In this document: one piece after another, positions 9,582 to 30,253 of the stretch
Numbering within the stretch: the stretch's first letter is position 1
Layout of the letters: each line of letters begins with the position of its first letter
Assembly (NCBI RefSeq): GCF_028416635.1
Contig: NZ_CP114013.1
Span: 4,030,001-4,094,000, forward strand
Direction: 5' to 3'
Source of the DNA: Baekduia alba
Lineage (GTDB): Bacteria; Actinomycetota; Thermoleophilia; Solirubrobacterales; Solirubrobacteraceae
DNA length: 64,000 nucleotides
Translations under genes and position numbers: made by a program
The notes under the pieces: model-generated
What the model saw: the letters and a program-made list of their open reading frames with translations, nothing else
Database searches by the model: none
What the model was told of the DNA's origin: nothing

Positions 9582-10565
9582 CTATGCCGCAGAGGCCGTC
9601 GCGCCGGCGCGCGCGTAGTACGCGGCGGCGCCCGGATGCAGCGCGATCGGCGTGTCGACCAGGCCGTCGACGGTGATCGGATGGGCGATCGGACTGCGAT
9701 CCGACGGGATGTGGGCGTAGTTCATGCCGACGAAGCGATCGGCGGTCTCGACGATGATCGCGGTCAGCAGCTCCGCCACGTCGTCGGCCAGCTCGGCGCG
9801 GACCACGATCAGGTACCCGCGGAACTCGATGGTGTCGACGGGCGCGTCCATCCCGTGCAGCGAGCCGGCCGGCATCGTGATCGGCGGGCAGGCCAGCTCC
9901 TCGGCCACGGCGGCCAGGACCTCCGGCGCGAACGACAGGAACGACAGCTCGTGGCGCTCGGCGGCCGACCGCCACCACGGCGTCATCACCGCCTCGTGGA
10001 ACACGGCGTCGGCGCCGGCGTCGAGCTCGGCCACGCACTCGAAGGGCAGGTCGCGCGGCACGATCTCCCCGCCCCACTCCTCCAGCGCCGCGGGCGGAAG
10101 GCCCGCGAGGGTGAGCACCCGCTGGGCCGCGTAGCCGGCGAACGACCCGCCCGGCCCGTCGAGCGCGGTGGCCAGCCGCAGCGCCGGGCGCTTCTGGACG
10201 AGGTCGGCGATCGACGTCAGCCCCAGCTCGGCGCGGGCGGCGAAGAGCAGGCGATCGGGATGCGGCAGCTCCCCCAGCGCGCGCAGGAACGGGTAGCCCG
10301 CGCCGGCGAACGGCCCGGTCCCGCGCACCGCGAGCGTCGCGGCCGCCGACGGCGTGACGACCGCGACGTCGACCTCGCCGCGCCCCAGCGCGTGCAGGTT
10401 GCCGACGCCGGCGTCGCCCGTGCGCAGCACGCTGTAGGTGTCGCCCGGCGTCCGCTCGTGCAGCTCGTGGGCCAGCCACCCGCACACGCGCGTGAGGTTC
10501 GCACCGCCCCAGTCGCCGATGAACCGGAGCCCGACGGGGCGCTCGAAGATGCCGTGATCAGCCAT
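9582..10565 (-). CDS. TAXI-family solute-binding protein, orphan, no signal peptide
   Basis: This protein of about 327 residues resembles TAXI-type TRAP solute receptors: GLRFIGDWGGANLTRVCGWL near the start, DAGVGNLHALGRGEVDVAVV around 50-70, and NYAHIPSDRSPIAHPI and LHPGAAAYY near the end. TAXI proteins normally bind a substrate outside the cell for a TRAP membrane complex. No secretion signal is visible from this ATG, and no TRAP membrane subunit lies nearby. A longer start at 10655 is possible but would overlap the GTATTTGC element. It may be a cytoplasmic sensor or enzyme. Confidence 0.7.
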   Translation of the reverse strand: MADHGIFERPVGLRFIGDWGGANLTRVCGWLAHELHERTPGDTYSVLRTGDAGVGNLHALGRGEVDVAVVTPSAAATLAVRGTGPFAGAGYPFLRALGELPHPDRLLFAARAELGLTSIADLVQKRPALRLATALDGPGGSFAGYAAQRVLTLAGLPPAALEEWGGEIVPRDLPFECVAELDAGADAVFHEAVMTPWWRSAAERHELSFLSFAPEVLAAVAEELACPPITMPAGSLHGMDAPVDTIEFRGYLIVVRAELADDVAELLTAIIVETADRFVGMNYAHIPSDRSPIAHPITVDGLVDTPIALHPGAAAYYARAGATASAA

Positions 10566-19275: not shown

Positions 19276-19908
19276 TCAGGCGCGGCGGCTGACGACGACC
19301 TCGAGCCGGCGCGGCCCGTGGACGCCCTCGACGCGGACGAAGCCGATGTCCGACGTCGCCGACGGGCCGCTCACCAGCGTCAGCGGCCGCGGCGTGCCGG
19401 CCAGCCGGGCGATCGCCTCCGGCACCGTGCCGACGATCTGGTCGGCACCGACGACGCACACGTGGACGTCGGGCAGGAGCGTGATCGCCCGGCGGCCCTG
19501 CCCGACGCCGCCGTCGAGGATCAGCGTGCCGGTCTCGGCGATCGCCAGCGCGCAGGCGGTCACGACCGCGCCGACCTGCGCCAGCCGCGCGTGCGGCAGC
19601 GGCGGGTCGTCGGCGAGCGCCGCGATCCCGGTGGGCACCCAGCCCGCGGGCAGGTCGGCCGGGACCACGGCATCGGCGGCGGCGTGCCGGGTCAGCGCCG
19701 CGGCGACGGCCGCGCCGACCTCGCTCGCGTCCTCGACGACCGTCACGCCGGCGCGGTAGTCGCCGACGCGCTGGGTGAACCGCGCCACCGGATCGGCCAC
19801 GCGCGGCGCCGCGGCCGCGGCCGCCGGCGCAGGCGGCGGAGCCGGCGCACGTTCGTCGCCGAGCGCGTCGCGGATCCGCCGCAGGACCTCCGCCCGCGCG
19901 GCGCTCAT
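19276..19908 (-). CDS. lutC: LutC-like LUD domain protein
   Basis: This 210-residue protein has an Ala/Pro-rich linker near 20-40 and then the LUD domain: VVTACALAIAETGTLIL, LLPDVHVCVVGADQIV and LVSGPSATSDIGF. This is LutC, one subunit of the LutABC iron-sulfur L-lactate oxidation complex. The ATG overlaps the lutB stop (ATGA). It is the last gene of the seven-gene leftward operon. In this context the complex may oxidise another 2-hydroxy acid such as glycolate (inference). Confidence 0.88.
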   Translation of the reverse strand: MSAARAEVLRRIRDALGDERAPAPPPAPAAAAAAPRVADPVARFTQRVGDYRAGVTVVEDASEVGAAVAAALTRHAAADAVVPADLPAGWVPTGIAALADDPPLPHARLAQVGAVVTACALAIAETGTLILDGGVGQGRRAITLLPDVHVCVVGADQIVGTVPEAIARLAGTPRPLTLVSGPSATSDIGFVRVEGVHGPRRLEVVVSRRA

Positions 19909-21290
19909 CGCGAACGCCACCACTCACGGAACGTCTGCTCCGGCGGCGCCGGCAGATCGCGGAACGTCGTCCACGGCTTGAGCGGGCCCGGCAGCCGGCG
20001 CTCGAGGCGCCCGTCGCGCGACAGCGGCCGGCCCGCCGTCCGCAGCGCCCGCTGGGCCAGCTCGTACTTCCGCCGCGTGCCGAGCACCCGCGCCATCGCG
20101 CGCATCGCGGCCCGCTCGCTCGGCGGCGCGCCGTGCTCGCGCGCGACGCGCCCACGGAGGTGGATGAGCACCGACGGGATGTCGATCTTGACCGGGCAGA
20201 CCTCGTAGCACGCGCCGCACAGCGTGCTGGCCGACGGCAGCGTCGCGTGGCGCTCGAAGCCGTCGATCAGCGGGCTGAGGATCGCGCCGATCGGCCCGGC
20301 GTAGGTCGCGTCGTAGGCGTGCCCGCCGGCGCGCTCGTAGACCGGGCAGACGTTGAGGCACGCCGAGCAGCGGATGCAGCGCAGCGCCTGGCGCCCGATC
20401 GCGTCGGCCAGCGCGGTGGTGCGCCCGTTGTCGAGCAGCACGAGGTGGAAGGCCTGCGGCCCGTCGCCGGGCGTCACGCCCGTCCAGAGCGAGGTGTATG
20501 GGTTCATCCGCTCACCGGTCGACGAGCGCGGCAGCAGCTGGAGCATCGCGCCGAGGTCCTCCCAGCGCGGCACGACCTTCTCGATGCCCATCACCGTGAT
20601 CAGCGTGTCGGGCAGCGTGGTGCACATCCGCCCGTTGCCCTCGGACTCCACGACACAGATCGCGCCGGTCTCGGCGACGGCGAAGTTCGCGCCCGACACG
20701 CCGACGCGGACGCGCAGGAACCGCTCGCGCAGATGCCGCCGCGCGACGCCGGCGAGCTCCGCCGGGTCGGTGCTGAGCCCGGTCTCCCCCAGCTCGCGCT
20801 CGAACAGCGCGCGGATGTCCTCGCGGCTGCGGTGGATGGCCGGGACGAGGATGTGCGACGGGCGGTCGTCGCCGAGCTGGACGATCAGCTCGGCCAGATC
20901 GGTCTCGTAGGCCGCGATCCCGGCCGCGGCGAGCGCGGCGTTGAGGCCGATCTCCTCGGTGGCCATCGACTTGACCTTGACGACCTCGTCGGCGCCGGTG
21001 GCGCGCACGAGCGCGGTCACGATCGCGTTCGCCTCGCCGGCATCGCGCGCCCAGTGGACCTGCCCACCGGCGGCGACGACGTTGGCCTCGAGGCGCTCCA
21101 GGTGCGCGTCGAGCGCCAGCAGGGCCGCGTCCTTGATGGCCGCGCCCGCGGTGCGCAGCCCCTCCCAGTCGTCGACCTCGGCCACGGCGGCGTCGCGCTT
21201 GGCGCGGATCGTCGTCGTGGCCTGACGGAGGTTGCGCCGCAGCTGCGGATCGTCGAGCCCGGCGCGCGCGGCGCTGGCGAACCCGCTCAC
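19905..21290 (-). CDS. lutB: LutB-like LUD/4Fe-4S protein
   Basis: This 461-residue protein has an N-terminal LUD domain (VVKVKSMATEEIGLNAAL, GVSGANFAVAETGAICVVES) and a C-terminal ferredoxin domain with CIRCSACLNVCP and CGACYEVCP, two 4Fe-4S clusters, followed by a basic tail. It is the central electron-transfer subunit of LutABC. The GTG start overlaps the lutA stop. All expected cysteines are present. Confidence 0.9.
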   Translation of the reverse strand: MSGFASAARAGLDDPQLRRNLRQATTTIRAKRDAAVAEVDDWEGLRTAGAAIKDAALLALDAHLERLEANVVAAGGQVHWARDAGEANAIVTALVRATGADEVVKVKSMATEEIGLNAALAAAGIAAYETDLAELIVQLGDDRPSHILVPAIHRSREDIRALFERELGETGLSTDPAELAGVARRHLRERFLRVRVGVSGANFAVAETGAICVVESEGNGRMCTTLPDTLITVMGIEKVVPRWEDLGAMLQLLPRSSTGERMNPYTSLWTGVTPGDGPQAFHLVLLDNGRTTALADAIGRQALRCIRCSACLNVCPVYERAGGHAYDATYAGPIGAILSPLIDGFERHATLPSASTLCGACYEVCPVKIDIPSVLIHLRGRVAREHGAPPSERAAMRAMARVLGTRRKYELAQRALRTAGRPLSRDGRLERRLPGPLKPWTTFRDLPAPPEQTFREWWRSR

Positions 21291-22018
21291 GTCGCCCCCA
21301 GGATCTCGGCGAGGTGGAGCGTCCGCACCCCGGCGCGCCCGCGCCGCAATCCGCCGTCGATGTGCAGCAGGCAGGACGCGTCCCCCGCGCAGCAGACGTC
21401 GGCGCCGGTCCGCAGGATCCCGGCGACCTTGTCGGTCAGCATCGCCGCGGACGTGTCGGCGTTCTTGATCGAGAAGGTGCCGCCGAAGCCGCAGCACGTC
21501 GTCGCGTCTGGCAGCTCGACGAGCTCGAGCTCGCGCACCGCGCGCAGGAGCCGCAGCGGCCGGTCGCCGAGCCCGAGGCCGCGCAGCCCGTGGCAGGTCG
21601 GGTGGTAGGTCACGCGGTGCGGGAACACCGCGCCGACGTCCTCCAGGCCGAGGACGTCGACGAGGAGCTCGGACAGGTCGTGCACCCTGGGCGCGAGCGC
21701 CGCGGCGTCGGCGGCCAGCTGCTCGTCCTCGGCCGCGCGGGCCAGCGCGGCGAACTGCTCGCGCACCATGCCGACGCACGACGGGGAGGGCGAGACGATC
21801 GCGTCGTGGTCGTCGGCGCCGAAGACGCGGACGAACCGGCGGGCCAGCGCCGTGGCCTCGGCCGGGTAGCCGGTGTTGGCGTGCATCTGGCCGCAGCAGG
21901 TCTGCTCCTCGGGGAACACGACCTCGTGCCCCAGCCGCTCGAGCAGCTCGACCGTGGCCCGCCCCACCGCGGGCGAGAGCGTGTCGGCCAGGCACGTGAC
22001 GAAGAGCGCGACGCGCAT
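21287..22018 (-). CDS. lutA: LutA-like CCG-domain protein
   Basis: This 243-residue protein has two cysteine-rich CCG domains: FPEEQTCCGQMHANTGY near 35-51 and DATTCCGFGGTFSIKN near 172-187, each with a preceding partner Cys (TCLAD near 8; YHPTCHG near 143). It is the GlpC/GlcF-like subunit of the LutABC complex. It follows the apnO-like gene by 6 nt, tying lactate/glycolate-type oxidation to the sugar-acid operon. Confidence 0.9.
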   Translation of the reverse strand: MRVALFVTCLADTLSPAVGRATVELLERLGHEVVFPEEQTCCGQMHANTGYPAEATALARRFVRVFGADDHDAIVSPSPSCVGMVREQFAALARAAEDEQLAADAAALAPRVHDLSELLVDVLGLEDVGAVFPHRVTYHPTCHGLRGLGLGDRPLRLLRAVRELELVELPDATTCCGFGGTFSIKNADTSAAMLTDKVAGILRTGADVCCAGDASCLLHIDGGLRRGRAGVRTLHLAEILGAT

Positions 22019-22024
22019 TTTCGA

Positions 22025-22870
22025 TCAGCCTTGCTCACCGGTGATCCGGCCCACGCTGAGGCGGACCGCGTCGGGCGCGAACGCCTCACGCCAACCCGGC
22101 TGGATCAGGTCCTCCATCGCGTCGCGCACCGCCTGCTTGGCCCCGTCGGAGAGCTCCCAGTCGAGCTCGCCGAACAGCAGCGCGCAGGAGATCTGCACGT
22201 GGCCGAGCAGGAAGTCGCGGGCGGCGAGCGGGTCGACGCCGCGCGCGACCACCTCGTCCAGCGCGTCGCGGATGAGCTGGATGCAGGTCAGCGTGATCGT
22301 CTCCGACATCGCCGGCTCGAGCAGCGCCATGTCGGCCAGCGACACGCGGAAGCTGCGCAGGACCGGCCGGAAGACGCGCTCGGCCAGCGCGACGCCGCGC
22401 GCGTAGTCGGACTCCGGCCCCCAGACGAGCGCGTGCACGAGCGACTGGCGCGCGAGACCGCCGCCCCAGTAGTCGCGGCGCGCCTCGATCGTCGGCTCGG
22501 CGAGCAGGTCGAACAGCGGCGGGTGGGTCGGGTGGGTGACGAAGCAGCCGACGTCGTCGCGCCGGGGGATCTTGTCGGCGTGCGCGCCGGCCGGGTCGAG
22601 GCAGACGACCAGCGCGCCGGGATCGAGCCGCGGCACGACATCGGCGGCGACGTCGCCGACGATCCGATCGGGGACGGCGAACACGACCAGCTCGGCGCCG
22701 CGGTACGCCGCGTCGGGCGGCGTCGTCGCCCATCCCTCGGCGGCGAGGCGCGCGACGCCGGCCGGGTCGTTCTCCACGAGCGTCAGGCGATAGGTCGCGT
22801 CGTCGCGCAGCGACCGCCGGACGCGTCCCCCCATGCGGCCGGCCGCGCCGACCAGCGTGACGTCGATCAT
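22025..22870 (-). CDS. apnO: D-apionate oxidoisomerase-like dehydrogenase
   Basis: This 281-residue protein has a Rossmann loop VGAAGRMGGRV and a phosphogluconate-dehydrogenase-type C-terminal domain with THPTHPPLFD, LEPAMSETITLTCIQLIRDA and QISCALLFGELDWELSDGAK. This is the architecture of ApnO, which uses NAD(P) to turn D-apionate into 3-oxo-isoapionate. Its ATG overlaps the DUF1537 kinase stop, and two RuBisCO-like genes lie upstream, the known apionate context. Assignment rests on family plus neighbourhood; other branched or linear sugar acids are possible. Confidence 0.75.
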   Translation of the reverse strand: MIDVTLVGAAGRMGGRVRRSLRDDATYRLTLVENDPAGVARLAAEGWATTPPDAAYRGAELVVFAVPDRIVGDVAADVVPRLDPGALVVCLDPAGAHADKIPRRDDVGCFVTHPTHPPLFDLLAEPTIEARRDYWGGGLARQSLVHALVWGPESDYARGVALAERVFRPVLRSFRVSLADMALLEPAMSETITLTCIQLIRDALDEVVARGVDPLAARDFLLGHVQISCALLFGELDWELSDGAKQAVRDAMEDLIQPGWREAFAPDAVRLSVGRITGEQG

Positions 22871-24234
22871 GCTTGCACCTCGATGGGCTCGTGGATGGTG
22901 GGCCGGCCCAGGCGGACCTCTTCGAAGAAGCTCGGGCTGCCGGTCTGCCCGCCCTTGCAGATCACCTCGACGCCGTCCGGCGCGGCGGGGCCGTGCAGCC
23001 GGCAGAACGGCATGGCGGGCGCGAAGGCGCCGGCGATCTCCAGCGCCTCGGCGCCCAGCTCGCGCAGCACGTCGCCCGAGGAGTCGCCACCGGCGATCGC
23101 GAGCCGGCGGACGGGCGTCCGGGCGAGGACGTGGCGCGCGACGGCGCCCAGCGTCGTGCCCAGCCGGCGGCGCTCCGATCCCGACAGCTGGGGCAGCCTG
23201 ATCGCCTCGTCCCCGTCCCCCAGCGCGCGGCCGGCGGTGTGGACGACCACGCTGGTGCCGGCTTCCAGAGCGGCCCGCGCCTCCTGCGCCGCGACCTCCA
23301 CCGCCCGCGCGCCCGCCTCCGGGCGCGTCGCGCTGGTGAGGTCGAGCGCCACCTCCACCCAGCCGTCGCGGGCCGCGCGGGCGATCTGGCGGTCGGTCAC
23401 CGGCGACCGGCTCCCGCACACCGCGAGGACCACGTCCTCGACCTGGCGCTCAGGCGCGCCCAACGGTTGCTGGCCGAGCGCGTCGGCCAGCCCGTGCTCG
23501 AGCCCCGAGGAGCCGACGACCAGCAGCGGCGCCTCCGCGGCCCGCGCGCACAGGACGCTCGCGAGCAGGCGCAGGTGCCCGTCGGAGGTCGTGTCGCACA
23601 CGAACGTGTCGATGCCCAGGTCGGCGAGGGCGTCGATGCGCGCCTCGACGGCCGGGCGACCGGCGTTCAGCGTGACGAGGTCGAGGTCGCCGATCGGGCG
23701 GGCCGACTGCGCGGCCAGCACGCGCCGGACGTCGCTCTCGGCCATCGGCGTGACCGGGTGCGCGCGCATCGTCGGGTGGCGGTCCAGCCGGAAGACGGCG
23801 CTGTCGCCGCCCGAGCGCGCGAAGAGGTTGGAGAACGCGCACCACCGCCCCAGGCGCGGGGCGGCCGGCATGACCGCCACGAACGGCGAGCACACCACGT
23901 CCTGGGCGGCGTCGATCGCCGCGCCGATGGAGCCGACCAACGACGAGGAGTCGAACGTGGAGCAGATCTTGTAGTGGATCAGGCGGGCGCCCGACGCGAG
24001 CATGACCTCGGCGGCCGCCGAGACGGCGTTGCGCACCTCGGCCGGGGCGAGGGTCCGGGTGCTCCCGGCCCAGCCGACGGCCTGCGCCCAGGGATAGCGC
24101 TCCAGCTGCGCGCGGTCGGGCGGCGCGACGTTGAGCACCGCGCGCAGCCCGGCCTGCGCGAGACCTTCGAGCACGTCGATCGACCCGGTCATGTCGTCGC
24201 CGTACCAGGCGACGAGCGGGCGCTCAGGCGACAT
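22867..24234 (-). CDS. oiaK: DUF1537 four-carbon acid sugar kinase family, OiaK-like
   Basis: This 455-residue protein starts with WYGDDMTGSIDVLEG, the N-terminal substrate loop of DUF1537 kinases, and has a C-terminal nucleotide part with AIAGGDSSGDVLRELG, CRLHGP and ICKGGQTGSPSFF. DUF1537 enzymes phosphorylate 3-oxo-tetronates or 3-oxo-isoapionate. Next to apnO and RuBisCO-like genes the best reading is 3-oxo-isoapionate kinase. It overlaps the RuBisCO-like gene by 11 nt. The symbol is inferred from context. Confidence 0.75.
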   Translation of the reverse strand: MSPERPLVAWYGDDMTGSIDVLEGLAQAGLRAVLNVAPPDRAQLERYPWAQAVGWAGSTRTLAPAEVRNAVSAAAEVMLASGARLIHYKICSTFDSSSLVGSIGAAIDAAQDVVCSPFVAVMPAAPRLGRWCAFSNLFARSGGDSAVFRLDRHPTMRAHPVTPMAESDVRRVLAAQSARPIGDLDLVTLNAGRPAVEARIDALADLGIDTFVCDTTSDGHLRLLASVLCARAAEAPLLVVGSSGLEHGLADALGQQPLGAPERQVEDVVLAVCGSRSPVTDRQIARAARDGWVEVALDLTSATRPEAGARAVEVAAQEARAALEAGTSVVVHTAGRALGDGDEAIRLPQLSGSERRRLGTTLGAVARHVLARTPVRRLAIAGGDSSGDVLRELGAEALEIAGAFAPAMPFCRLHGPAAPDGVEVICKGGQTGSPSFFEEVRLGRPTIHEPIEVQA

Positions 24235-25411
24235 GCTGCGGGCCGAAGCGCTCGAGGGACTGCGCCAGCGCCGGGACGTCGGCCGCCATCGCGGCGAGCG
24301 GCACACCGGCGATCGCCGCGTCCCACGCGGCGCGCACCGCGCGGACGCCCGCCGCCGGGCCGTCGGGATGGCCCTGGATGCCGCCGCCGCACATGTACAT
24401 GAAGTCCTGGGTCGGCACCGTCGCGTACTGGTCGACCGCCTGCCCGCCCCACTGGCCCGACGAGACCACCGGAAGCGCCGGCGCGACGCCGCCGAGGTCG
24501 GCGACGCAGGCGCGCATGGAGGCGGCGACCGAGGCGTCGGGCTCCCAGAACTTGTTGGCGAAGCCGTTGACGTGGAGGTGGTCGACCCCGGCCATGCGCC
24601 ACAGCGCCTGGTAGGCGCCGAAGGTCATCCCCCACCGCCGCGACCGGGCCAGGAGGCCCCAGCCGTTGCGGTGGCCGTGCAGCGCCAGCGTCGTGTGGCG
24701 GCGCAGGGCGAGCACGCCGGCCAGGCCGACCTGGTTGAGGCTGACCATCACGCAGCGGCCGCCGGTCTCGGCGACGCGGTCGGCGCCCGCGACGACGGCG
24801 TCCAGGTCGTCGCCGCTGACGTTGAACGCGAAGATCGGCCGCCGGCCCGTCTCCAGCGCCACGTCCTCCAGGACGCGCGCGACCGCCTCGGCGCGCCGCT
24901 CGAGCGGCGCGTGCGGCTGGTCGGCGAGGAGCTCGTCGTCCTTGAGGAAGTCCAGGCCGGCCGCGGCCAGCAGCCGGGCGCGCTCGGCGGTCTCGGCGAC
25001 CGACAGCCCGACGCTCGGCTTGATGATGGACCCCAACATGGGTCCGTCCGGGACGTCCGCCAGCGCGCGGGTGCCGGCGATGCCGTGCAGGGGCCCGGGC
25101 ACCGCGGCGGCGAGCGCCGCGCCCGGAAGGACGGCGGTCAGACGCAACCCGGACAGCTGCGGGAGGTCGAACGGCGCCTCGATCAGCGCGCCGGTCAGCG
25201 CGACGAGGTCCGCGCCGATCGTCGCGTCGTCCAGGCCCAGCGTGACGCGCGCCTGGGCGCCGCCGGCGTGACCGCTCGCGGCGCCGACCTCGACGACGTC
25301 GACGGGTCCGTCGTCGCCGCCCACCGCCGCGGCCAGCGCGGCGACCGCGACGTCGACCGACCCCGCGGTCTCCAGGGCGTAGGAGACCTGGGTGCGCGTC
25401 AGCGTGGTCAT
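24224..25411 (-). CDS. RuBisCO-like protein A: intact barrel, degenerate N-domain
   Basis: This 395-residue protein has RuBisCO large-subunit C-domain landmarks: SIIKPSVGL with Lys131, LDFLKDDELLADQP with the carbamylation Lys157 and metal acids 158-160, LALHGHRNG near 243-250, a loop-6 NKFWE (Lys287) and YMCGGGIQGHPDGPAAGV near 339-356. The N-terminal domain is poorly conserved: the positions where partner-subunit Glu, Thr and Asn are expected read AVGGDDGP and LTGALIE, so none is visible. In apionate pathways RuBisCO-like proteins decarboxylate or cleave 3-oxo-isoapionate 4-phosphate (OiaX, OiaT). ATGA overlap with RuBisCO-like protein B implies coupled 1:1 synthesis. Confidence 0.82.
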   Translation of the reverse strand: MTTLTRTQVSYALETAGSVDVAVAALAAAVGGDDGPVDVVEVGAASGHAGGAQARVTLGLDDATIGADLVALTGALIEAPFDLPQLSGLRLTAVLPGAALAAAVPGPLHGIAGTRALADVPDGPMLGSIIKPSVGLSVAETAERARLLAAAGLDFLKDDELLADQPHAPLERRAEAVARVLEDVALETGRRPIFAFNVSGDDLDAVVAGADRVAETGGRCVMVSLNQVGLAGVLALRRHTTLALHGHRNGWGLLARSRRWGMTFGAYQALWRMAGVDHLHVNGFANKFWEPDASVAASMRACVADLGGVAPALPVVSSGQWGGQAVDQYATVPTQDFMYMCGGGIQGHPDGPAAGVRAVRAAWDAAIAGVPLAAMAADVPALAQSLERFGPQHVA

Positions 25412-26442
25412 GTGGTGGCTTCCTCCTCGATCAGGATGTCGTCGTGCTCGGCGCGATGCGCCGTGCCGGCGGCGACCGCGCCCAGGGCGCGGTCCCGCCC
25501 GTGCAGGAGCGGCGTGAGCCGCGCGCGGACGCCGGCGGCCGGATCCGGGTGCGCCGCACCGACCGGCAGGTGGTCGACGCCGGCCAGCCGCCAGATCGCC
25601 TGCAGCGCCTCGTCGGCGATGCCGAACCGCGCCGAGCGGGTCAGCGCGACGCCGGGCGCGGACCGCGCGGCGATCAGGACGCCGGTGCGCCGCTGCAGGT
25701 GCGCGACGGCGGTGAGGCCGACGCCCGCCACGCGCACGCCGACCGCGTGGCCGCCGCCGGCGACCACCAGGTGGGCATGGACGACCATCGCGGCCGGCTC
25801 GTCGTCGATGGTGTAGGTGAACAGGGCGCGCCGGCCGTGGCGCTCGCGGTGCTCGGCGAGCACGCGCTCGACGGCGGCGACGCGGTCGCGCAGCCGACAC
25901 CACGCCGGATCGGCGACCGGGACGGGATCCCGGATCACGTCGACGCCGCGCGCGAGCGCGGACCGGACGCCGGCGGCGACCGCGTCCGGGGTGGGCCGCC
26001 GCGTCGCCCCCACCCCGCCGGCGACGAGCGGCCCCTCGCGCCGGGCGAGCAGCCGCCGGGTCCCGTCGACGCCGAAGCGCGGGCGCGGGCACCCGCGGAG
26101 GAAGCCGTCGGACAGCCTGAGGTCGACGAGTCGGAGCGCGGAGACCTGCGCGACCTCGCTGACGTTGCCGGCGACGGACGCCAGCAGCGTCGTGAGGTCG
26201 CCGCCCGCCAGGTCCTCGGGCAGCGCGAGCGCCAGCCGCGCCGGCGTGCGCCCCGCGCCGTCCGGGCTGCCGGTGGCCTGCAGGTCGGCGACGGCGATCG
26301 CGAAGCGCTCGACGCCCGCGGCGTCGTCGCCCGCGACGCGGACGAAGGTCCCGGTCGACCCCTCGCCGGCGAGGACCGCGGCCGCATGCTCGGGATCGCC
26401 GGCGACGATGTCGTAGTTGGCGATGATGGTTGACCCTGACAC
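25408..26442 (-). CDS. RuBisCO-like protein B: intact N-domain, dead and shortened barrel
   Basis: This 344-residue protein has a good RuBisCO N-domain: IIANYDI, then LAGEGSTGTFVRV with Glu27 and Thr32 spaced as in RuBisCO Glu60/Thr65, AGNVSEVAQVSALRLVDLRL with Asn93 (like Asn123), and PRFGVDGTRRLL. The barrel has lost its catalytic residues: KPxxGL reads GATRRPT, KDDE reads RDPV at 171-174, HxHR reads AARS. The final barrel strands with the GGG phosphate loop are missing. It cannot be active alone. The GTG start at 26442 touches the operator. It is the first gene of the seven-gene operon. Confidence 0.78.
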   Translation of the reverse strand: MSGSTIIANYDIVAGDPEHAAAVLAGEGSTGTFVRVAGDDAAGVERFAIAVADLQATGSPDGAGRTPARLALALPEDLAGGDLTTLLASVAGNVSEVAQVSALRLVDLRLSDGFLRGCPRPRFGVDGTRRLLARREGPLVAGGVGATRRPTPDAVAAGVRSALARGVDVIRDPVPVADPAWCRLRDRVAAVERVLAEHRERHGRRALFTYTIDDEPAAMVVHAHLVVAGGGHAVGVRVAGVGLTAVAHLQRRTGVLIAARSAPGVALTRSARFGIADEALQAIWRLAGVDHLPVGAAHPDPAAGVRARLTPLLHGRDRALGAVAAGTAHRAEHDDILIEEEATT

Positions 26443-26472
26443 TGAGATCTCAGTCTACACTGAGATCTCAGT
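26441..26472. promoter_or_regulatory. Tandem GntR operators between RuBisCO-like operon and gntR
   Basis: Two perfect 14-bp palindromes ACTGAGATCTCAGT lie at 26441-26454 and 26459-26472, centres 18 bp apart on the same helix face or nearly so. On the minus strand TAGACT overlaps the inner palindrome and can serve as a -10 box, with TTGCAT 18 bp upstream. Repression by the adjacent GntR protein is expected. Confidence 0.75.
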
Positions 26473-28420: not shown

Positions 28421-28432
28421 ACCCGAACGGGT
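28421..28432. promoter_or_regulatory. LuxR-type palindrome ACCCGAACGGGT, copy 1
   Basis: A 12-bp inverted repeat (5-bp arms, AA centre) lies upstream of the GAF-receiver-LuxR gene and touches the stop of the SMP-30 gene. An identical copy is at 30303-30314 before another LuxR gene. Confidence 0.55.
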
Positions 28433-29337
28433 CAGTGGCCGGCGAGCGCGACGTGGTGACCGGCCACCCGCGTACGCAGCCGGTAGACGCTCCCGGTGGC
28501 GCACACGAACAGCTCGTCCCACGCGCGCCCGCCCCAGGTGAGGTTGCCGACGTTGGGCTCGTCGAACGCGAGCACGCCCAGTCGCGCGCCGCGCCGGTCG
28601 AAGACCCAGATCCCGCCCGGCCCCGTCGTCCACAGGTTGCCGTGCACGTCGCACGCCATCCCGTCGACGATCCCGTGCTCGAAGCGCCCGTCGCCGACGT
28701 CCGGCGCGAAGACGCGCGGCGTGGCGAGGCGGCCGTCCGGGCGCCGGGGGAAGGCCAGCACCTGGGCGCGCGGCGTGTCGTTGACGTACAACAGCCGCTC
28801 GTCGGGCGACAGGCACAGGCCGTTGGGCTGGTCGAAGCCGTCGTGCTCGCACGTCAGCGCGCCCGTCGCGGGATCCACCCGGTAGAGCCCGCGCACGTCG
28901 AGCTCGGGCGGGCGATCGACGCCGTGGCCGTGCGCGGCGCTGCGCCCGTAGGTCGGATCCGTGAAGTAGACGGTCCCGTCGCTGGCCACGCACACGTCGT
29001 TGGGGCTGTTGAGCTGGCGGCCCTGGTGCGCCGACGCCAGGATCCGCACCGCGCCGTCGGGCGCCCAGGCCACGACGCGGCTCGTCGCGTGCTCGCACAC
29101 CACGAGCGACAGGTCGGGGGCGAACGCCGACCCGTTGGACATCTGCGCGGGGCGCGCGACCAGCTCGAGCCCGTCCTGCTCGCCCCAGCGCCAGCGCGCG
29201 TCGCCGGGGACGTCGCTGAAGTACAGCCGGCGCTCACCGGGATGCCAGGCCGGGCCCTCGGTGAACCCGAGGCCCTCGACCAGGCGCTCCGGCGCCGCGT
29301 CCGGTCCGAGGAGGTCGTCGAGCATGTGAGCGCACAT
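28432..29337 (-). CDS. SMP-30/gluconolactonase family sugar lactonase
   Basis: This 301-residue beta-propeller protein has the metal-site motifs of SMP-30 lactonases: GFTEGPAWHPGERRLYFSDV (Glu27), GRQLNSPNDVCVASDG, DQPNGLCLSPDERLLYVND and DGMACDVHGNLW. These Ca or Zn enzymes open sugar lactones to aldonic acids. It lies 36 nt behind an SDR that carries the GntR operator, so a dehydrogenase plus lactonase pair could make D-apionate or a similar acid for the ApnO-like enzyme (inference). The known ApnL apionolactonase belongs to another family. Confidence 0.85.
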   Translation of the reverse strand: MCAHMLDDLLGPDAAPERLVEGLGFTEGPAWHPGERRLYFSDVPGDARWRWGEQDGLELVARPAQMSNGSAFAPDLSLVVCEHATSRVVAWAPDGAVRILASAHQGRQLNSPNDVCVASDGTVYFTDPTYGRSAAHGHGVDRPPELDVRGLYRVDPATGALTCEHDGFDQPNGLCLSPDERLLYVNDTPRAQVLAFPRRPDGRLATPRVFAPDVGDGRFEHGIVDGMACDVHGNLWTTGPGGIWVFDRRGARLGVLAFDEPNVGNLTWGGRAWDELFVCATGSVYRLRTRVAGHHVALAGH

Positions 29338-29373: not shown

Positions 29374-30204
29374 TCAGGCGGCGAACGGCAGCTGGTCGGC
29401 CGTGCCGCGCCAGGCCAGCGTGCCGCCGTCGGCGACGAACGACTGACCGGTGATGTACGACGCCTGCGGGCTGCCCAGGAAGCAGATCAGCTGCGCGATG
29501 TCGTCGGGCTCGCCGAAGCGCCGGACCAGGTGCGTGGACAGCAGCTCCTCGGTCCACGCGTCCTTGTCCTCGGCGCTCTCGAAGACCGTCTCCATCATCG
29601 GCGTGCGCACGTTGCCCGGGCAGTAGCAGTTGACGCGCACGCCGGCGGGCGCGAGCTCGGCGGCCAGCGAGCGGGTCAGCAGCAGCACGCCGCCCTTCGC
29701 CGCGCAGTACGCGTTGATGCCCGCCCAGCCGACGAACGACGCCATCGACCCGGCATTGAGGATGCAGGCGTGCTGGCTGGCGCGCAGGTGCGGCAGCGCG
29801 TGCTTCGCGCACAGCCACGCGCCCGTCACGCCGACCTCCAGGACGCGCGCGAAGTGGTCGCGGCCGAAGCCCTCGAGCGACGTGTCGTCCGCCAGCGCCC
29901 AGTCGATCACGCCCGCGTTGTTGACCAGCACGTCGATGCCGCCGAAGCGCTCCGCCGCGCCGGCCATGAGCGCGGCCACCTGCGCCTCGTCGGTGACGTC
30001 GCAGCCCACGAACGCCGCGCGCCCGCCGTCGGCCGCGATCGTCGCCACGGTCTCCTCGCCCGCCTCGGCGTTCGTGTCGGACACGACCACCGCGGCGCCG
30101 CGCCGGGCGGCGAGGCGCGCCGCCGACTCGCCGAGCCCGCGCCCACCGCCGGTGATCACGAACACGAGGCCTTCGAGGGTGCGCGGCTCGGGGGAAGCGG
30201 TCAT
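29374..30204 (-). CDS. SDR dehydrogenase of the GntR regulon
   Basis: This 276-residue classical SDR has TGGGRGLG, NNAG, catalytic Ser in NAGSMAS and YCAAK as YxxxK, and ends with the FVADGGTLAW motif. I chose ATG 30204 because AAGGAG lies about 12 nt upstream; an ATG at 30228 is possible. The upstream region holds the GntR palindrome with an overlapping TAGACT -10-like box. With the lactonase behind it, oxidation of an aldose or polyol to a lactone is the likely role. Confidence 0.85.
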   Translation of the reverse strand: MTASPEPRTLEGLVFVITGGGRGLGESAARLAARRGAAVVVSDTNAEAGEETVATIAADGGRAAFVGCDVTDEAQVAALMAGAAERFGGIDVLVNNAGVIDWALADDTSLEGFGRDHFARVLEVGVTGAWLCAKHALPHLRASQHACILNAGSMASFVGWAGINAYCAAKGGVLLLTRSLAAELAPAGVRVNCYCPGNVRTPMMETVFESAEDKDAWTEELLSTHLVRRFGEPDDIAQLICFLGSPQASYITGQSFVADGGTLAWRGTADQLPFAA

Positions 30205-30239
30205 CAGGGGCTCCTGCTCCTTCGACATGGTTGACATCA

Positions 30240-30253
30240 ACTGAGATCTCAGT
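30240..30253. promoter_or_regulatory. GntR operator ACTGAGATCTCAGT, third copy
   Basis: This perfect 14-bp palindrome is identical to the two sites at 26441-26472. It is again followed outward by CTA, so that TAGACT on the minus strand overlaps it. It places the SDR-lactonase operon in the same regulon as the RuBisCO-like operon. Confidence 0.75.

What the first reader, a model, noticed from the sequence alone, without database searches (positions are those of the whole stretch)
24224..26442. Split RuBisCO-like pair with complementary loss of active-site halves
In RuBisCO the active site is made by the N-domain of one subunit and the barrel of the other. Here gene B (25408-26442) keeps the N-domain residues (Glu27, Thr32, Asn93) but has lost the barrel lysines, KDDE metal site, HxHR and the final phosphate loop. 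Gene A (24224-25411) keeps all barrel landmarks (Lys131, KDDE 157-160, Lys287, GGG 342-344) but shows no N-domain Glu, Thr or Asn. The genes overlap by ATGA. This fits an obligate heteromer with one composite site per A-B pair and a pseudoenzyme subunit. The residue pattern is seen directly; heteromer formation is inference. I know of no described RuBisCO-like enzyme of this kind.
Basis: partly seen in the sequence, partly recalled or inferred. Interest (0 to 1): 0.92.

Follow-up and report, generated by a model that had tools for sequence, protein, structure and literature searches.

The report
Split RuBisCO-like enzyme, complementary half-dead subunits
A bacterium carries two side-by-side copies of a RuBisCO-like sugar-breakdown enzyme, each of which has lost exactly the half of the active site that the other still has, so they most likely work only as a mixed pair with one working site.

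Summary
On the MINUS strand, B (25408-26442, 344 aa) and A (24224-25411, 395 aa) overlap by ATGA. In an alignment with 41 intact OiaX-like proteins, all of which carry both halves of the site, A keeps 11/11 listed barrel residues and 0/3 of the N-domain trio (its Glu60/Thr65 loop is cut out). B keeps 3/3 of the trio and 0/11 of the barrel list; its main barrel deletions fall on catalytic loops 6, 7 and 8. No frameshift explains this. Predicted folds are RuBisCO-like. A genome of the same phylum (G475) has one intact gene in this place. A palindrome found three times in the genome, all here, marks the cluster.

Best reading: duplication of a homodimer, then complementary loss, giving an obligate A-B heteromer with one composite site. 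Complex formation is inferred. No second such pair was noticed in the searched genomes (lists read by eye, some capped), and the titles listed in my paper searches describe none. The OiaX cut-off is not met; glycolate-forming chemistry is at least as likely as decarboxylation.

The parts
25408..26442 (-). Gene B: RuBisCO-like subunit with the N-domain catalytic trio and a dead barrel (residues 1-119 N-domain, 26086-26442; 120-344 barrel, 25411-26085)
   Evidence: E27/T32/N93 kept; 0 of 11 listed barrel residues kept; PF02788 and PF00016 over cut-off; AlphaFold pLDDT 78.2
24224..25411 (-). Gene A: RuBisCO-like subunit with a complete barrel and an N-domain lacking the Glu60/Thr65 loop and Asn123 (residues 1-105 N-domain, 25097-25411; 106-395 barrel, 24227-25096)
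   Evidence: 11 of 11 listed barrel residues kept, trio absent; no PF02788 match at E 0.001; AlphaFold pLDDT 86.9
25422..25428 (-). Shine-Dalgarno-like GAGGAGG for A, inside B's last codons (B ends ILIEEEATT)
   Evidence: Read directly in the sequence
22867..24234 (-). Four-carbon acid sugar kinase, OiaK-like (below the curated cut-off)
   Evidence: PF07005 + PF17042; NF042436 325 bits, cut-off 700; ATG start read from the sequence
22025..22882 (-). PGDH_C-type dehydrogenase, ApnO-like (the name ApnO is recalled)
   Evidence: PF16896 148.3 bits; 50% identical to the gene in the same place in G475
21287..22018 (-). LutA-like CCG-domain protein
   Evidence: PF02754
19905..21287 (-). LutB-like iron-sulfur protein
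   Evidence: TIGR00273 453.8 bits, cut-off 444.8
19276..19923 (-). LutC-like LUD-domain protein
   Evidence: PF02589 79.5 bits
26484..27185 (+). Divergent GntR/FCD regulator
   Evidence: PF00392 + PF07729; 39% identical to the GntR of the G475 cluster
26442..26471 (.). Two CTGAGATCTCAG palindromes between B and the GntR gene, probable operators
   Evidence: only three exact sites in the 5.86 Mb genome
30241..30252 (.). Third CTGAGATCTCAG palindrome, directly upstream of the SDR gene
29374..30240 (-). SDR sugar dehydrogenase candidate, probably co-regulated
   Evidence: PF13561/PF00106; NF005559 233.8 bits, cut-off 215
28432..29337 (-). SMP-30/gluconolactonase-type lactonase candidate
   Evidence: PF08450 161.5 bits

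Best explanation
A and B are tandem descendants of one homodimeric OiaX-like RuBisCO-like enzyme of a branched-sugar catabolic operon. In RuBisCO each active site is built from the barrel of one large subunit and the N-domain of the adjacent one. After duplication, A lost the N-domain contribution (the Glu60-Thr65 loop was cut out, Asn123 replaced) and B lost the barrel contribution (Lys175, carbamate Lys201, metal ligands, His294-Arg295, His327, loop 6 Lys334, phosphate loops). The enzyme is therefore most likely an obligate A-B heterodimer or a multiple of it, with one working site (A barrel + B N-domain) and one vestigial site (B barrel + A N-domain). B is a pseudoenzyme by its barrel, yet supplies three catalytic residues. 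Shown: residue and loop loss, predicted folds, gene order. Inferred: heteromer formation, mutual dependence, and the reaction (on a phosphorylated branched keto acid or ketose; one yielding glycolate is weakly favoured because LutABC-like oxidation genes follow).
For: 41 of 41 intact relatives carry both halves; A has 0/3 trio and 11/11 barrel residues, B 3/3 and 0/11. Family-conserved columns kept: A 6/20 N-domain, 60/66 barrel; B 14/20 and 26/66; lowest among the 41 intact relatives 18/20 and 59/66. Losses hit catalytic loops: A misses EQSSGTFV, B loops 6, 7, 8; B keeps 2/14 catalytic but 24/52 other conserved barrel columns. Models: A 380 residues on 3nwr, Z 47.0, rmsd 2.5; B 329 residues, Z 32.7, rmsd 3.3. 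B's GC3 is 0.96, neighbours 0.94-0.99. ATGA overlap, SD for A inside B. The only two PF00016 matches of this genome. G475 has one intact RLP followed by kinase, PGDH_C and GntR genes. PMC5786004 passage: Tyr20/Glu60/Thr65/Asn123 of the N-domain complete the site of the adjacent subunit. Recalled, not found or read: N-domain and barrel mutants of R. rubrum RuBisCO complement each other as hybrid dimers.
Against: Only one genome: the genome-contig scan with B gave 4 loci, all intact OiaX-like genes, and I noticed no second adjacent pair elsewhere. No A-B complex was modelled; no binding or activity data exist. Short RLPs in genomes of the same phylum (L025-L028, L140, L141) seem by eye to lack the trio and show no second RLP in their short loci, so trio loss alone need not mean partner dependence; canonical-type OiaX proteins already have D and G at two of the three positions. 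B has a very long branch (4.06; A 1.82; median 0.36), an odd composition, an unresolved position, and the bootstrap had not settled. B's Fisher tests are modest (p 0.02-0.04) and columns are not independent. B also has small N-domain gaps. In B's model residues 29-37, most of the trio loop, have pLDDT under 50.
Confidence: 0.72

Rival explanations
1. A works alone as a homodimer with changed chemistry that no longer needs the N-domain trio, and B is a decaying duplicate.
For: Short RLPs of the same phylum seem by eye to lack the trio and show no RLP partner in their loci. The D/G/Q clade, two of whose members pass the OiaX cut-off, has Asp at 60 and Gly at 123. B is highly diverged.
Against: B keeps exactly the three N-domain residues that A lacks, an open frame of 344 codons, the neighbours' codon-position composition, a predicted fold and a 4-nt overlap with A. 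Thr65 is kept in all 41 intact relatives while A lacks the whole loop.
Confidence: 0.13
2. B is an allosteric activator or scaffold (prozyme-like): A's site does not use B's Glu27/Thr32/Asn93 directly.
For: Dead paralogues activate trypanosomatid deoxyhypusine synthase (PMC3663545, abstract and passages) and AdoMetDC (PMC5201418, start of abstract in the listing).
Against: It does not explain why B kept the trio in particular, nor why A lost the loop that in RuBisCO feeds the partner's site (inference).
Confidence: 0.1
3. Assembly or sequencing artefact, or recent pseudogenisation of both copies.
For: Single genome, no orthologous pair found.
Against: Relatives match only the two open frames; A and B are only about 30% identical, so the divergence is old; candidate operators and a ribosome-binding site are in place.
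Confidence: 0.03

Closest known systems
Canonical OiaX, 3-oxo-isoapionate-4-phosphate decarboxylase (NCBIfam NF042437)
   Same: Same superfamily and best NCBIfam profile for both A and B; the operon carries an OiaK-like and a PGDH_C (ApnO-like) gene
   Different: A scores 352 and B 154 bits against a cut-off of 700. Of seven relatives tested, two pass (L058, L037); these and six like them carry D60/G123/Q327, whereas A+B together carry E/N/H. OiaX proteins here are single intact chains.
Single-gene OiaX-like RLPs with E60/T65/N123/H327 (e.g. L062 of G475); 3nwr, a RuBisCO-like protein of Burkholderia fungorum, is the nearest solved structure
   Same: A's barrel is 56% identical to L062; the residue set of A and B added together is the same; same kinase and PGDH_C neighbours
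   Different: They keep both halves in one protein; here the halves are divided between two
RLPs of the D-apiose and D-hamamelose pathways
   Same: Passages read name decarboxylation, transcarboxylation/hydrolysis and oxygenation by such RLPs; a kinase beside the RLP is shared with the loci
   Different: The passages read mention no two-chain RLP; which reaction A-B performs is unknown
Trypanosomatid deoxyhypusine synthase with its dead paralogue
   Same: Catalytically impaired and inactive paralogues form the active heteromer (PMC3663545)
   Different: Eukaryotic, genes on different chromosomes, unrelated fold (recalled); here the loss divides an interface site by domain
Form I RuBisCO with small subunits
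   Same: A two-chain RuBisCO-fold enzyme
   Different: The small subunit contributes no active-site residues (PMC5786004 passage) and is not a paralogue (recalled); here both chains are large-subunit-like

Membership tests
RuBisCO superfamily (large-subunit-like) | RuBisCO_large catalytic domain PF00016 over gathering score | tested here: met
   A 203.2, B 51.8 bits, cut-off 30.1
RuBisCO superfamily (large-subunit-like) | N-terminal domain PF02788 | tested here: inconclusive
   B 35.1 bits, cut-off 20.7; A no match at E 0.001, though A's model keeps N-domain strands and helices
RuBisCO superfamily (large-subunit-like) | RuBisCO fold | tested here: met
   Predicted models only: A Z 47.0, rmsd 2.5 over 380; B Z 32.7, rmsd 3.3 over 329, both best on 3nwr
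RuBisCO superfamily (large-subunit-like) | Dimer with intersubunit active sites | not testable with these tools
   No complex prediction was available; taken over from RuBisCO (PMC5786004 passage)
OiaX equivalog NF042437 | Score of at least 700 bits | tested here: not met
   A 352.1, B 153.7; L058 761.4 and L037 738.5 pass, five other relatives do not
OiaX equivalog NF042437 | Signature D60/G123/Q327 seen in the two passing proteins (my own observation, not a published criterion) | tested here: not met
   A H327; B E60 and N123
OiaX equivalog NF042437 | 3-oxo-isoapionate-4-phosphate decarboxylase activity | not testable with these tools
   Needs an assay
OiaX-like E/N/H clade RLP | Complete N-domain trio and barrel set in one chain | tested here: not met
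   Neither A nor B has both; all 33 E/N/H relatives in the alignment do
OiaX-like E/N/H clade RLP | Four-carbon acid sugar kinase gene beside it | tested here: met
   Kinase directly downstream; a relative of it was also found in all 13 loci examined
Enzyme/pseudoenzyme paralogue heteromer (prozyme kind) | A paralogue lacking catalytic residues | tested here: met
   B lacks 11 of 11 listed barrel residues
Enzyme/pseudoenzyme paralogue heteromer (prozyme kind) | Physical complex and activation | not testable with these tools
   Needs co-purification and assays

The most novel reading that the evidence does not exclude
The first RuBisCO-superfamily enzyme known to me in which the ancestral homodimer has become an obligate heteromer of two large-subunit paralogues, each stripped of the opposite half of the intersubunit active site: one barrel subunit, one N-domain subunit, one working and one vestigial site per pair.
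Probability: 0.66. Interest if true: 0.88.

Novelty: new variant of a known kind. Interest (0 to 1): 0.75.

Why it matters
RuBisCO's active site is shared between two large subunits. A natural division of that site between two paralogues would be a clean case of duplication followed by complementary degeneration at the level of an active site. It would allow direct tests of half-of-sites catalysis in this fold, because one site per pair would already be dead, and would show that an apparently dead RuBisCO-like gene can be essential. It also warns that annotation gene by gene would call B a pseudogene and A an ordinary OiaX-like enzyme.

Tried and rejected
Frameshift, hidden-exon or misassembly explanation: rejected; relatives match the pair only in the two gene frames.

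Plus-strand reading of the coordinates: unrelated reverse-frame translations.

Other split pairs. None besides the window's own in the own genome. B was sought in 299 genomes of the class; A in 146 of the family (17), 396 of the phylum (29), 397 of the phylum of G740 (35; E 1e-20, which the window's own B only just passes with A as query, E 2.4e-21), 232 of the order (68; E 1e-30, which did not show the window's own B), 39 of the family of G475 (69), 239 of the order of G740 (75; list cut) and 238 of the order of G414 (76). The sets overlap. I read the listed coordinates by eye and noticed no two matches placed like A and B, except the two pieces of one broken gene in G601. Plasmid records: 318 hit with B and 360 with A, of which 20 and 60 were listed; tandems were not enumerated.

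L037, which lacks Asn123, looked like a second half-enzyme; rejected, it passes the OiaX cut-off and keeps Thr65 and the barrel set.

Short RLPs of the same phylum first looked like relatives of A or B; by eye a different family, with no second RLP in the locus. They were not aligned formally.

Tree: A and B fall near L062 and the D/G/Q clade, unresolved, so sister status of A and B is not shown; the bootstrap had not settled and the outgroup was not one side of a branch. Partial sequences (L064, L068 and two pieces of L066) were dropped before the alignment, L067 and L121 before the counts; L091, L092, L094 and L095, repeats of other rows, were left out. L134 and L136, intact relatives found later, were not added to the counts.

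DNA repeats: one 84-nt, 70% A-B repeat fits an old duplication but proves little.

Synteny: the window's lactonase gene gave no match in the G475 locus at E 1e-15; the SMP-30-like frame there is my reading of the translation.

Literature, listings only (titles and starts of abstracts): searches (20 of 173 papers listed; 5 of 5; 1, unrelated; 15 of 178; 2 of 2; 12 of 28; 12 of 160) showed no heteromeric RuBisCO-like enzyme; unlisted papers and subscription journals were not seen. (10 of 27 listed) did not show the recalled hybrid-dimer paper. Carter 2018 on D-apiose is not held; its content is known here only through a passage in PMC6302742. The phylum of the window's genome is named by no call; I avoid naming it.
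Full report
WHAT WAS CHECKED. The two frames exist as described but on the minus strand: B 25408-26442 (GTG start, 344 aa) and A 24224-25411 (ATG, 395 aa), overlapping in ATGA. A Shine-Dalgarno-like GAGGAGG for A lies within B's last codons, so translation of the two is probably coupled (inference). They are the only two PF00016 matches at E 0.001 in the 5.86 Mb genome.

RESIDUES. I aligned A and B with 43 OiaX-like or nearby relatives taken from genomes and plasmids, plus six RuBisCO-like outgroup rows. With two off-clade rows (L067, L121) set aside, 41 of 41 intact relatives carry the N-domain residues at 60 (E or D), 65 (T) and 123 (N or G) and the barrel set (H or Q at 327, S or N at 379). 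A has deletions at Glu60 and Thr65 and Ala at Asn123, but 11/11 of the listed barrel residues. B has E, T, N but 0/11: K175G, K201R, D203P, E204V, H294R, R295S, H327P, K334 deleted, S379A, G403 and G404 missing. That RuBisCO's site joins N-domain residues of one subunit to barrel residues of the adjacent one is stated in a passage of PMC5786004.

LOOPS, NOT JUST RESIDUES. Relative to well-filled columns, A misses the eight residues EQSSGTFV, which hold Glu60 and Thr65, and a 17-residue stretch further on. B misses seven residues of loop 6 (Lys334), eight of loop 7 (after Ser379-Gly380) and nearly everything from just before the GGG loop on; it also has small N-domain gaps away from the trio. 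Of 20 family-conserved N-domain columns A keeps 6 and B 14; of 66 barrel columns A keeps 60 and B 26; the lowest of the 41 intact relatives keep 18 and 59. In B's barrel 2/14 catalytic columns survive against 24/52 others, Fisher p 0.035. N-domain against barrel gives p 2e-7 for A but only 0.02 for B; the barrels of A and B differ at p 4e-10, their N-domains at p 0.03. These tests treat columns as independent, which they are not.

FOLDS. AlphaFold with only six sequences gives A pLDDT 86.9, pTM 0.88, with a complete barrel and an N-domain in which helix 19-34 runs almost directly into strand 38-42, where relatives have the catalytic loop. B gives pLDDT 78.2, pTM 0.76: N-domain strands and helices, barrel strands up to what I count as the seventh; residues 29-37 (most of the trio loop) and 327-335 have pLDDT under 50. 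Nearest solved structure for both is 3nwr, a RuBisCO-like protein: A Z 47.0, rmsd 2.5 over 380; B Z 32.7, rmsd 3.3 over 329. A shared fold shows no function.

SURROUNDINGS. Downstream of A, head to tail: an OiaK-like kinase, a PGDH_C dehydrogenase and LutA-, LutB-, LutC-like genes. A GntR/FCD regulator is divergent. The palindrome CTGAGATCTCAG occurs at exactly three places in the genome (the pattern read backwards: none): two between B and the regulator and one before an SDR gene that is followed by an SMP-30-type lactonase gene. With two mismatches allowed the window count (3) was no more than expected by chance in shuffles (mean 1.99); the weight rests on the exact matches and their places. 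I read them as operators that tie the SDR and lactonase to the pathway (inference). In G475, of another family of the same phylum, one intact RLP is followed by the kinase, the PGDH_C gene and a GntR/FCD gene, then by an SDR gene and a frame that I read as SMP-30-like. So the pair stands where one gene stands elsewhere.

ORIGIN. A and B are about 30% identical and share one 84-nt 70% repeat. In the tree both attach near L062 of G475 and the D/G/Q clade, without resolved order; end branches are 1.82 (A) and 4.06 (B) against a median of 0.36, and the bootstrap had not settled. A's barrel is 55.9% identical to L062, within the range of intact relatives (46.2-64.6%), while its N-domain is 23.8%, below their minimum of 32.6%. 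B's N-domain is 37.0% (within their range) and its barrel 32.1% (below it). Tandem duplication in place followed by complementary loss fits best; it is not proven that A and B are each other's closest relatives.

MECHANISM. If A and B dimerise as RuBisCO does, the A barrel/B N-domain site is complete, with the E/T/N + H327 residue set of 33 relatives, and the B barrel/A N-domain site has lost its listed residues. A-A dimers would lack the trio at both sites; B-B dimers the barrel chemistry. This is what relaxed selection on one of two sites in an obligate heteromer predicts. Heteromer formation is inferred. The reaction is uncertain: of seven relatives tested, the two that pass the OiaX cut-off have D/G/Q residues, so A-B need not be a decarboxylase. 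A passage of PMC6302742 names decarboxylation and transcarboxylation/hydrolysis for RLPs of D-apiose catabolism. A passage of PMC8914248, unclearly worded, links a hamamelose-pathway RLP with 3-phosphoglycerate and glycolate, and PMC10176493 cites the same work for oxygenation; that these are the products is my recollection. LutABC-like genes in the operon could oxidise glycolate, so I favour a glycolate-yielding reaction, weakly.

LIMITS. The pair is known from one genome. The genome-contig scan with B returned four loci, all intact OiaX-like genes (residues). Genome searches showed no second adjacent pair in the rows that I read by eye; thresholds could hide a B-like gene and the list was cut. 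A different family of short RLPs in genomes of the same phylum appears to do without the trio (by eye), so A acting alone is not excluded. Dead paralogues that activate partners are known (PMC3663545, abstract and passages; PMC5201418, start of abstract), and a modelling paper finds that duplicated homodimers tend to drift towards heterodimers (PMC11066126, abstract). I recall, without having found it in the library, an experiment in which N-domain and barrel mutants of Rhodospirillum rubrum RuBisCO complemented each other in hybrid dimers.

VERDICT. Observation confirmed, strand added; interpretation partly supported and the best available; a new variant of a known kind.

Noticed in passing
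26442-26453, 26460-26471, 30241-30252: A perfect 12-nt palindrome CTGAGATCTCAG occurs only three times in the genome, all in this cluster; probable GntR operator. One copy touches B's GTG start codon.
   Followed up: partly
L025, L026, L027, L028, L140, L141: Short RuBisCO-like proteins (open frames of about 340-400 aa in most) from genomes of the same phylum that by eye lack the Glu60/Thr65/Asn123 residues, and several the loop-6 Lys, with KDDE kept; function unknown to me.
   Followed up: partly
L130 about 10160-10264 (G601): The OiaX-like gene of G601 is broken into two frames: a sequencing error or a decaying gene.
   Followed up: no
L058, L037, L093, L108, L110, L112, L114, L115: Eight relatives, including the two that were tested and pass the OiaX cut-off, share D60/G123/Q327 and form one branch of the tree (100/98), against E/N/H in 33 relatives; this may separate two chemistries.
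   Followed up: partly
19276-22018: LutA-LutB-LutC-like genes follow the RLP, kinase and PGDH_C genes head to tail, suggesting a glycolate or lactate step in the same pathway.
   Followed up: no
G740 C22 240707-241744 and 536369-537367: Shinella daejeonensis (the genome of L037) carries two D/G-type OiaX-like genes about 300 kb apart on one contig.
   Followed up: no
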